Shown piece after piece: positions 1-3,578 of a stretch of DNA of 5,530 nt. The notes beneath the pieces are model-generated. The model was not told the DNA's origin. It was given only the letters and a program-made list of their open reading frames with translations, and made no database searches. The DNA is from an uncultured beta proteobacterium (GTDB lineage Bacteria > Pseudomonadota > Gammaproteobacteria > Burkholderiales > Burkholderiaceae), in contig CAJAFJ010000426.1 in the NCBI GenBank assembly GCA_903938955.1, positions 1-5,530 of the forward strand, in the 5' to 3' direction. How positions within the stretch are numbered: position 1 is the stretch's first letter; every line of letters begins with the position of its first letter. The position numbers and the translations under genes were made by a program.

Positions 1-108
1 ATCATTCGGCACCATGGCCAAATTGACAAAAATCCGGGGCAAGTAAAACAGACCAGCAAACCAGCTGGCCACGAGAACGATATGAAGCGATTTAATAGTC
101 AAAAACAT
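1..108 (-). CDS. hemJ: HemJ-type protoporphyrinogen IX oxidase (partial, N-terminal 36 codons)
   Basis: Only the N-terminus is present; the gene runs off the left edge. The minus strand opens with ATG at 108-106 and stays open for 36 codons: MFLTIKSLHIVLVASWFAGL, then FYLPRIFVNLAMVPND. The pattern KSLHI, a hydrophobic stretch with SWFAGLFYLPR, then an aromatic/basic end is the hallmark first membrane helix of the HemJ family (UPF0093, CopD-like). His9 corresponds to the conserved, presumably heme-linked histidine of that family, and Arg25 to the conserved arginine. HemJ is an inner-membrane protein that oxidises protoporphyrinogen IX to protoporphyrin IX late in heme synthesis. It diverges from hemB, another heme gene, which supports the call. 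No convincing Shine-Dalgarno site precedes the ATG, and no separate promoter is visible between the terminator at 149-176 and the start. Its transcription may therefore depend on readthrough of that terminator. The main alternative is another CopD-family membrane protein. Confidence 0.82.
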   Translation of the reverse strand, partial: MFLTIKSLHIVLVASWFAGLFYLPRIFVNLAMVPND

Positions 109-148
109 GCGTCACAGTTTAAACCTGGGGTCTCAAAATGTTCAGGCG

Positions 149-176
149 AAAAAAAACCCCAGCACAAGTGCTGGGG
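149..176 (-). terminator. Intrinsic terminator upstream of hemJ
   Basis: On the minus strand CCCCAGCA and TGCTGGGG form a perfect 8-bp GC-rich stem with a 4-nt loop (176-157). It is followed at once by eight T residues (156-149). No T-tract follows the stem on the plus strand, so it is directional and acts on transcription heading to hemJ. No protein-coding gene ends there on that strand; the transcript it ends must start in the gap or come from antisense transcription of hemB. Confidence 0.85.
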
Positions 177-249
177 TGGTAAGCCTATTTGCTGTCACAC
201 ATCAAGGCCCCGCTCAGGGAGGAAAAGCGGGAGACAGCGAACTGCCCAC
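149..249 (-). ncRNA. Candidate structured small RNA or hemJ attenuator leader
   Basis: The sequence shows a complete minus-strand transcription unit of about 100 nt: promoter hexamers at 282-277 and 259-254, a likely start near 247-249, several helices, and a terminator ending at 149. The RNA can form (a) a 5' hairpin GGCAG-UUCG-CUGUC (246-233); (b) a hairpin with arms CCCGCU (231-226) and AGCGGG (214-209) whose 11-nt loop contains UUCCUCCC; (c) a long-range helix GCUGUC (238-233) with GACAGC (196-191) enclosing hairpin b and excluding hairpin a; and (d) the terminator hairpin. It contains no sensible open reading frame. It ends 41 nt before the hemJ start, so it could be a free small RNA or a cis-acting leader that stops transcription before hemJ. 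From memory, a 'hemB RNA motif' was reported upstream of hemB in Burkholderia by comparative genomics; whether this is that family needs a covariance-model search. Confidence 0.62.
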
Positions 250-253
250 GGGT

Positions 254-282
254 AATTTAACAAAAAATAACGCCCCTTTCAA
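254..282 (-). promoter_or_regulatory. Sigma-70-type promoter of the minus-strand RNA (and perhaps hemJ)
   Basis: Reading the minus strand, TTGAAA (282-277, five of six matches to TTGACA) is followed by exactly 17 nt and then TAAATT (259-254, four of six matches to TATAAT). A start about 7 nt downstream falls on a G near 247-249, just ahead of the first predicted hairpin. This is the best-spaced promoter in the gap and it points towards hemJ. Confidence 0.6.
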
Positions 283-294
283 GAAAAAGGTTAA

Positions 295-1359
<1,065 letters not shown>

Positions 1360-2602: not shown

Positions 2603-2621
2603 TTATTGGTATGACCAGTAA
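2603..2621. promoter_or_regulatory. FadR/LldR-type operator at the regulator promoter
   Basis: The core TGGTATGACCA (2607-2617) matches the TnGTnnnACnA operator pattern of the FadR subfamily of GntR regulators. The arms extend to TTATTGGT and ACCAGTAA with one mismatch. The site abuts the -10 hexamer and covers the predicted transcription start, so the regulator probably represses its own gene. The same core recurs before lutA. Confidence 0.65.
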
Positions 2622-3561: not shown

Positions 3562-3578
3562 AACTGGTAATACCAGTT
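3562..3578. promoter_or_regulatory. FadR/LldR-type operator of the lut operon
   Basis: AACTGGT-AAT-ACCAGTT has perfect 7-bp arms around a 3-bp centre. Its core TGGTAATACCA (3565-3575) fits TnGTnnnACnA and shares TGGTxxxACCA with the site before the regulator gene. It lies downstream of the candidate -10 hexamers and about 35 bp before the lutA ATG, a position suited to repression. Confidence 0.75.

What the first reader, a model, noticed from the sequence alone, without database searches (positions are those of the whole stretch)
149..282. Complete minus-strand structured RNA between hemJ and hemB: small RNA or hemJ attenuator
The gap contains, in order on the minus strand, a TTGAAA-17-TAAATT promoter, helices, and a perfect 8-bp terminator hairpin with eight U residues, together about 100 nt with no sensible reading frame. 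It ends 41 nt before the hemJ ATG, and no second promoter is visible after it. So either it is a trans-acting small RNA, or hemJ is expressed by regulated readthrough, which would be a cis-regulated heme gene. A 'hemB RNA motif' upstream of hemB was described in Burkholderia; membership is my inference.
Basis: partly seen in the sequence, partly recalled or inferred. Interest (0 to 1): 0.72.

Follow-up and report, generated by a model that had tools for sequence, protein, structure and literature searches.

The report
Known anti-hemB small RNA, wider family
The hairpin-rich stretch between two heme genes looks like a separately transcribed small RNA of a known but little-studied family, whose relatives occupy the chromosomal spot where other bacteria keep well-known regulators such as ErsA, sX13 and Spot 42.

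Summary
The minus strand has a sigma-70-like promoter (282-254), a predicted ~99-nt transcript (247-149) folding into four hairpins, and a strong terminator. It belongs to Rfam RF02837 "anti-hemB" (60.9 bits, cut-off 49.5), published as the 105-nt, RACE-confirmed, Hfq-binding ncS04 of Burkholderia cenocepacia. The hemJ-attenuator reading is not supported: hemJ carries its own conserved -10 just before its ATG, engB replaces hemJ in 28 of 59 loci with the RNA, and five loci keep hemJ without the RNA. Nor is it antisense to hemB mRNA: the two predicted starts diverge ~100 nt apart. Likeliest mechanism: a trans-acting sRNA whose conserved loop UUNUCCUCCCUGA pairs with Shine-Dalgarno sequences; my target searches found nothing coherent. 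Two additions beyond what I saw in print: (1) a 5' hairpin absent from Rfam's model, and dispersed paralogues; (2) RF02837-like RNAs in other genomes of the same class lie in the polA-engB gap (34 of 43 loci read show polA or engB in canonical orientation), where ErsA, sX13 and Spot 42 sit. Anti-hemB thus looks like the betaproteobacterial branch of the polA-locus sRNAs. Sequence support for ErsA and sX13 is below their cut-offs; for Spot 42 essentially only position is shown.

The parts
254..282 (-). Promoter of the small RNA: -35 TTGAAA (282-277), 17-nt spacer, -10 TAAATT (259-254)
   Evidence: Consensus scan, 9 of 12 matches with TG before the -10; the -10 (TTAAATT) recurs in close relatives such as L001 and L007
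149..247 (-). Small RNA of family RF02837 (anti-hemB), predicted about 99 nt; start inferred from the -10 spacing, end from the U run
   Evidence: RF02837 60.9 bits at 234-149; own model R1 91.9 bits, but the window is one of its training sequences; four-hairpin fold z -3.15
232..247 (-). Hairpin H1 (GGGCAG-UUCG-CUGUCU), outside the Rfam model
   Evidence: Fold; the 32 nt directly 5' of H2 fold with mean z -2.06 against shuffles in 83 distinct relatives, 79.5% below -1; in the window itself z is only -0.7
209..231 (-). Hairpin H2; apical loop 224-216 UUCCUCCCU inside the conserved stretch UUUUCCUCCCUGA (anti-Shine-Dalgarno type)
   Evidence: Alignment A2: stem 99.3% of cells paired, 3 of 5 pairs with double changes; CCUCCCUGA in 83 of 83 relatives examined, 53 of which had been picked through this motif
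183..208 (-). Hairpin H3 (GCCU...AGGC)
   Evidence: A2: 83.6% of cells paired, 2 of 5 pairs with double changes
156..177 (-). Hairpin H4, intrinsic terminator stem
   Evidence: A2: 80.5% of cells paired, 7 of 8 pairs with double changes
149..155 (-). U tract of the terminator, possible Hfq site (Hfq role inferred)
   Evidence: Sequence; Hfq binding stated for ncS04 in PMC5688073 with a reference
116..144 (-). Putative separate hemJ promoter TGAACA-17-TAAACT, 7 nt before the hemJ ATG (leaderless hemJ)
   Evidence: Sequence; conserved -10 in relatives
1..108 (-). hemJ, 5' part of the gene (UPF0093), runs off the window
   Evidence: Pfam PF03653, E 3e-11
311..338 (+). Putative hemB promoter ATGACA-16-TACACT, 7 nt before ATG 346 (leaderless hemB)
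   Evidence: a CACAAT-type -10 close to the hemB start is seen by eye in 14 of the 25 hemB upstreams printed
346..1359 (+). hemB (ALAD); ATG 346 is taken as the likelier start, 307 is the longest ORF
   Evidence: Pfam PF00490 from residue 24 of the 307 ORF; ORF

Best explanation
It is an independently transcribed, Hfq-type trans-acting small RNA of family RF02837 (anti-hemB). A sigma-70-like promoter starts a ~99-nt RNA that folds into four hairpins and ends at its own terminator. The conserved C-rich loop of the second hairpin (UUNUCCUCCCUGA) is displayed to base-pair with Shine-Dalgarno regions of several mRNAs and block their translation. It is the betaproteobacterial branch of the sRNAs encoded at the polA-engB locus of other proteobacteria. 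Shown here: family membership, structure with covariation, own promoter-like and terminator signals, a location independent of hemJ and partly of hemB, and the polA/engB position of relatives. Inferred: transcription in this organism, Hfq dependence, the Shine-Dalgarno pairing mechanism, and common descent with named polA-locus RNAs.
For: RF02837 60.9 bits over a cut-off of 49.5. ncS04/anti-hemB of B. cenocepacia is 105 nt with a RACE-confirmed 3' end, appears on Northern blots and is stated to bind Hfq (passages of PMC5688073). The RNA is found in 59 of 81 sources (window plus 80 HemB loci) and over cut-off in 104 of 150 genomes of the order. Covariation in an unguided alignment: 86.6% of cells paired, 12 of 18 pairs with double changes, falling to at most 52.2% paired when slid; beta plus other class members, model-fitted and so leaning to the structure: 92.9%, 17 of 18. 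Loop CCUCCCUGA in 83 of 83, 30 of them not picked through that motif, while stems differ. Copies of similar architecture elsewhere in two genomes. Location: 28 of 59 face engB, 28 of 59 precede hemJ. Of 43 class-level loci picked only by RF02837 score, 27 face engB, 26 follow polA, 34 show at least one. Rfam's ErsA, sX13, ar14 or ar7 models hit the same place in 13 of the 34 of these loci that were scanned, at E up to 1 and all below cut-off; 7 of 34 at E up to 0.05. Model R2, which does not contain it, finds a true ErsA locus at 26.6 bits. sX13 represses mRNAs with G-rich motifs through C-rich loops.
Against: No expression data exist for this organism. Two searches for extended complementarity to the loop before start codons gave no coherent target set: the 10-nt pattern had 5 hits in 10 genomes (two of them the sRNA gene itself; reversed-pattern control 3), and the 9-nt pattern had none in the nearest genome G001. 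sX13 is reported to act without Hfq, so Hfq dependence need not hold across the group. H3 and H4 loops are C-rich in most class-level members but rarely in beta members, so one loop at most would act in the window. RF02837 also gives weak matches (E up to 0.001, none over cut-off) in 3 of 14 control genomes: E. coli, Caulobacter, Deinobacterium, so weak hits alone are not specific. The beta-only model R1 gives ErsA just 14.7 bits.
Confidence: 0.8

Rival explanations
1. hemJ attenuator: the RNA is the leader of hemJ mRNA and hemJ is expressed by regulated readthrough of the terminator.
For: The RNA lies directly upstream of hemJ on the same strand in 28 of 59 loci, with a gap of only 29-40 nt in five, the window among them. 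In L015 and L020 the RNA stays with hemJ although hemB is 1.5 kb away.
Against: hemJ has its own -10 at a near-fixed distance from its ATG in 41 of 54 distinct upstreams. engB, on the opposite strand, takes the place of hemJ in 28 of 59. Five loci keep hemJ without the RNA. Burkholderia shows a discrete 105-nt RNA. Competing anti-terminator folds were not searched for systematically; the fold of the predicted RNA shows none.
Confidence: 0.06
2. Cis-antisense regulator of hemB, as the name anti-hemB suggests.
For: The gene lies upstream of hemB on the opposite strand, within about 450 nt of the HemB match, in 57 of 59 loci.
Against: Predicted starts are about 247 (RNA) and 346 (hemB), divergent and not overlapping; hemB appears leaderless. 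Some relatives keep the RNA with no HemB match within 1.5 kb (L089/L106, L141, L144, L145, L148, L153). Class-level relatives are next to polA/engB.
Confidence: 0.04
3. The RNA is a protein sponge or ribosome-directed decoy: the conserved loop mimics the anti-Shine-Dalgarno end of 16S rRNA or binds a protein rather than specific mRNAs.
For: The loop is constant over 9 nt in the relatives examined while its stem covaries, and target searches with extended complementarity found nothing coherent.
Against: sX13 represses reporter mRNAs through its C-rich loops, and the double-hairpin RNA S17 directly represses one mRNA and affects 91-92 genes, most with complementary sites near the ribosome-binding site.
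Confidence: 0.12

Closest known systems
RF02837 anti-hemB / ncS04 (Burkholderia RNA 7)
   Same: Sequence and structure over the full 81-position model, hemB neighbourhood, terminator, C-rich loop
   Different: The window's RNA and most relatives have a further 5' hairpin (H1) that the Rfam model does not contain; here the downstream gene is hemJ instead of engB
RF02278 double-hairpin 'toxic' sRNAs (bdhR1, ncS27; S17 of Bordetella)
   Same: Short RNA of betaproteobacteria with C/U-rich single-stranded anti-RBS segments; works alike by inference
   Different: Two hairpins rather than four; the window scores 27.8 bits against a cut-off of 50
sX13 (RF02232) of Xanthomonas
   Same: Gene next to polA, stem-loops with C-rich apical loops; RF02232 gives subthreshold hits at the same places as RF02837 in some class-level loci
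   Different: No RF02232 match was listed in the window at E up to 10; reported Hfq-independent; three C-rich loops
ErsA / Pseudomon-1 (RF01719)
   Same: polA-engB gap (polA upstream in L253); model R2 finds it at 26.6 bits
   Different: The window scores 18.5 bits against a cut-off of 50
Spot 42 (RF00021)
   Same: polA, spf, then convergent yihA (engB) in E. coli K-12
   Different: No C-rich loop like that of the window (sequence); window 18.4 bits against a cut-off of 80; model R2 gives spf 17.9 bits and R1 17.3 bits, the middle of the RNA unaligned in the R1 match

Membership tests
RF02837 anti-hemB | Score over the curated gathering cut-off (49.5 bits) | tested here: met
   60.9 bits, full-length 1-81
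RF02837 anti-hemB | Divergent position upstream of hemB in betaproteobacteria | tested here: met
   Window 149-247 (-) against hemB at 346 (+); same in relatives
RF02837 anti-hemB | Discrete ~100-nt transcript | not testable with these tools
   Reported for B. cenocepacia ncS04, not known for this organism
RF02278 double-hairpin toxic sRNA | Score over the cut-off (50 bits) and two-hairpin fold | tested here: not met
   27.8 bits; four hairpins
polA-engB locus sRNAs (ErsA, sX13, Spot 42) | Relatives of the RNA lie between polA and a convergent engB | tested here: met
   Of 43 class-level loci 34 show at least one canonical neighbour, 19 both; 3 are inverted in the gap, 6 have neither
polA-engB locus sRNAs (ErsA, sX13, Spot 42) | Sequence/structure similarity to a named member | tested here: inconclusive
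   ErsA locus 26.6 bits with R2 but 14.7 with R1; sX13/ErsA/ar14/ar7 models hit the same places in 13 of 34 scanned loci, all below cut-off; Spot 42 17.9 bits
polA-engB locus sRNAs (ErsA, sX13, Spot 42) | The window's own gene lies next to polA or engB | tested here: not met
   Its neighbours are hemJ and hemB; engB is the neighbour in 28 of 59 loci with the RNA
cis-acting hemJ leader/attenuator | Downstream gene depends on readthrough (no own promoter) and the association is conserved | tested here: not met
   Conserved hemJ -10 and exchange of hemJ for engB; dependence itself was not measured

The most novel reading that the evidence does not exclude
Anti-hemB, sX13, ErsA, probably the alphaproteobacterial ar7/ar14 RNAs and possibly Spot 42 descend from one ancient sRNA gene downstream of polA and facing engB. 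The betaproteobacterial members kept one near-invariant anti-Shine-Dalgarno loop while their stems turned over; the gene lost polA as neighbour (now hemB), in the Comamonadaceae-like group also engB (now hemJ), and in places multiplied into sibling copies.
Probability: 0.55. Interest if true: 0.66.

Novelty: new member of a known kind. Interest (0 to 1): 0.47.

Why it matters
The RNA itself is a new instance of a known family without a reported function in what I saw. The wider pattern would join several separately named regulators into one locus-bound family. It bears directly on a question left open in the sX13 paper: whether the polA locus of other bacteria encodes sRNAs and whether structurally related ones act alike. 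It also warns against reading the name anti-hemB as a function in heme synthesis.

Tried and rejected
hemJ attenuator and hemB antisense: rejected as set out above. Target search by loop complement before start codons: CTCAGGGAGG-N(4-11)-ATG had 5 hits over 10 genomes, two of them the sRNA gene itself, against 3 for the reversed pattern. CAGGGAGGA-N(3-10)-ATG had 34 hits, again two of them the sRNA gene, against 6 for the reversed pattern, but Shine-Dalgarno bias alone can give that; none were in the nearest genome G001. Of the 30 loci given for these, 19 had an open frame of at least 60 aa at the ATG; no function recurred by eye in the printed N-termini, and no family search was run on them. 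Spot 42 as a sequence relative: only weak scores, so position alone is claimed. RF00021 matched 0 of 143 genomes in the class sample, so Spot 42 proper was compared only through E. coli K-12. Arm-swap test of hairpins: native pairing was better by over 1 kcal/mol in 66 of 66 H1, 70 of 72 H2, 70 of 70 H3, 72 of 72 H4, but the hairpins were taken from each minimum-energy fold, so the test is circular and is not used; 3 of the 75 sequences given dropped out because no H2 hairpin appeared in the fold. Only the loop counts of that call are used. RNAalifold on A2 recovered H2 and H4 but not H3.

Limits of the samples: the 56 sequences of A2 were found with the pattern CCTCCCT[GT]A within 450 nt of the HemB match, so their loop is partly conserved by choice; 30 of the 83 sequences were not chosen through it, though RF02837 and R1 reward it too. 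One search was given 85 of the 89 beta-type hits then at hand (L016, L017, L049, L054 not given), 83 distinct. A4 holds 46 chosen loci (19 beta, 27 class-level), not all. The class-level loci are the RF02837 matches down to E 7.6e-6 outside G001 and G123 (43 loci); 69 of 143 genomes had a match at E up to 0.001 and the weaker ones were not read. In 'next to' means a tblastn match (E up to 1e-8) within 1.2 kb (engB) or 1.5 kb (polA) in the right orientation. A notebook entry of mine says hemJ has the -10 in 25 of 25 relatives; that was a first impression, the count (41 of 54) replaces it.

Full report
What is there. The minus strand between hemJ (ATG at 108) and hemB (ATG at 346) carries a sigma-70-like promoter at 282-254 and a 9-bp terminator with a T run ending at 149. 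From the predicted start near 247 the 99-nt RNA folds into four hairpins in a row: H1 247-232, H2 231-209, H3 208-183 and the terminator H4 177-156; energy -40.7 against -30.0 +/- 3.4 kcal/mol for shuffles. Rfam scan: RF02837 'anti-hemB', 60.9 bits (cut-off 49.5), E 7.7e-13, full length; other families listed for this place are below cut-off (RF02278 27.8, Pseudomon-1 18.5, Spot 42 18.4). Genes by Pfam: hemJ, hemB, CorA, a GntR/FCD regulator and a CCG-LUD-LUD series.

What is known. A 2012 Burkholderia survey lists anti-hemB once, in a table, as a trans-acting RNA (PMC3521395, one passage). In B. cenocepacia it is ncS04: 105 nt, 3' end confirmed by RACE, on Northern blots, no change over the threshold in any of the seven qPCR conditions, and stated to bind Hfq with a reference (PMC5688073, passages and section 8). 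Full-text search found 'anti-hemB' in three papers, one of them an antibody against HemB, 'ncS04' with sRNA in one and 'RF02837' in none. I saw no function reported.

Conservation and structure. Of 81 sources (the window and 80 HemB loci) 59 carry the RNA by model R1; 56 of them built the model, and one more (L016) is identical in sequence to a training row, so these match by construction. The 22 without it include Comamonas, Delftia, Polynucleobacter, Achromobacter, Advenella, Vandammella and Janthinobacterium records. Over the Rfam cut-off: 46 of 60 genomes of the family of the Rhodoferax genome G001, 104 of 150 of its order, 7 of 143 of its class (G001 and one genome of the order sample included). 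Control genomes: weak matches in 3 of 14, none over cut-off. In the unguided alignment of 56 sequences H2, H3 and H4 have 86.6% of cells paired, 12 of 18 pairs with changes on both sides, against at most 52.2% paired when the partner is slid. The loop of H2 contains CCUCCCUGA in 83 of 83 distinct relatives examined; 53 of these had been picked through the motif. In A2 it is in 55 of 56, L017 reading CCUCCCUUA. A hairpin directly 5' of H2, outside the Rfam model, has mean z -2.06, below -1 in 79.5% of 83; in the window alone it is weak (z -0.7). The 105-nt length of ncS04 against 81 model positions fits such an extra 5' part (inference).

Not a hemJ leader and not hemB antisense. hemJ has a -10-like hexamer 4-14 nt before its start in 41 of 54 distinct upstream sequences (all hemJ loci held, with or without the RNA) against 5% in shuffles, 32 of them at exactly 6 nt; ten more lie 18-19 nt before the start I used, where an upstream start codon is likely. 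In the window it is TAAACT at 121-116, 7 nt before the ATG. So hemJ is probably leaderless with its own promoter. The RNA is followed by hemJ in 28 of 59 loci, faces engB in 28, neither found in 3 (L029, L033, L057). L008, L018, L021, L030 and L035 have hemJ next to hemB and no match to the RNA. Against this reading: in L015 and L020 the RNA stays with hemJ although hemB lies 1.5 kb away, and in five loci the gap to hemJ is only 29-40 nt. hemB too looks leaderless, its -10 ending 7 nt before ATG 346; a CACAAT-type -10 near the start is visible in 14 of 25 printed relatives. The two predicted transcripts diverge and do not overlap. Of 29 best family-level loci (L140-L168), 24 have a HemB match within 1.5 kb and 5 do not.

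Paralogues. RF02837 has further copies in some genomes. In the Rhodoferax G001 (L092, L094, L096, L100) and the Roseateles G016 (L091, L093, two in L095) they fold into the same H2-H3-terminator series with different stems and a CCUCCCU-type loop (CCUUCCU in L100). Their neighbours differ from copy to copy, judged from translations only. Over cut-off among these eight are L091 and L092; the others score 32.8-48.5 bits. Several weaker RF02837 hits in other genomes are better explained as RF02278 double-hairpin RNAs. The Methylophilus genome G012 has its copy away from hemB.

The polA-engB connection. In the betaproteobacterial loci without hemJ the usual order is engB (+), sRNA (-), hemB (+). 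In the class-level search, 43 loci chosen only by RF02837 score were read: engB convergent just downstream of the RNA in 27, polA just upstream on the same strand in 26, both in 19, at least one in 34; three have the RNA inverted in that gap and six have neither gene in the fetched stretch, a few of which are cut by contig ends. This is the arrangement of Spot 42 in E. coli K-12 and of ErsA ('polA-engB intergenic region', PMC8575079, passage). sX13 lies beside polA, and its authors compare that place with the Spot 42 and ar7 loci and ask about other bacteria (PMC3771888, passage of section 23). Rfam's ErsA model hits G277 and G286 at the places of the RF02837 hits. Of the 43 loci 34 were scanned with all of Rfam: an sX13, ErsA, ar14 or ar7 match lay on the RNA in 13 at E up to 1, in 7 at E up to 0.05, all below cut-off; unrelated families (6C, PrrF, Scr3202) also gave such weak matches there. 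Model R2, built from 19 beta and 27 class-level RNAs, finds the one ErsA locus over Rfam's cut-off (L253, 121.3 bits with RF01719), which it does not contain, at 26.6 bits, E about 1e-5, and Spot 42 at only 17.9 bits; the beta-only R1 gives them 14.7 and 17.3 bits. In the class-level RNAs the H3 and H4 loops are often C-rich as well (34 of 40 and 30 of 41), in beta rarely (1 of 30 and 9 of 31) (loop counts only). I found no paper making the anti-hemB link in searches, judged from listings and from passages of the papers opened; one search listed 20 of 7,152, and PMC5760752, which mentions Spot 42, was not opened. Most subscription papers are outside that library.

Likely working. sX13 represses mRNAs carrying G-rich motifs through its C-rich loops, and the double-hairpin RNA S17 represses an mRNA with a complementary ribosome-binding site (PMC11722255, abstract and sections 8 and 12). 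A near-invariant anti-Shine-Dalgarno loop on a covarying stem fits the same mode. My target searches gave no coherent set, so the regulon is unknown, and nothing I found ties the RNA to heme.

Verdict. A new instance of a known family; the cis-regulation idea fails on comparative evidence; the interesting part is the family's likely membership in the polA-locus group.

Noticed in passing
window 106-121 (-) and 333-348 (+): Both hemJ and hemB look leaderless: -10 elements end 7 nt before their ATG, and the hemJ spacing is conserved in relatives.
   Followed up: partly
   Followed up: no
L092, L094, L096, L100; L091, L093, L095: Sibling copies of the anti-hemB RNA elsewhere in Rhodoferax G001 and Roseateles G016, each with its own stems but the same kind of loop.
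   Followed up: partly
window 2607-2617 and 3563-3577: Similar palindromes TGGTATGACCA and ACTGGTAATACCAGT before the GntR/FCD gene and before the CCG-LUD (lactate-utilisation-like) genes, perhaps operators of that regulator (read from the sequence, inference).
   Followed up: no
L208:2973-3057 (-): A c-di-GMP-I riboswitch (77.9 bits) between the sRNA and polA in one class-level genome.
   Followed up: no
L220, L230, L234: The sRNA gene appears inverted within the polA-engB gap.
   Followed up: no
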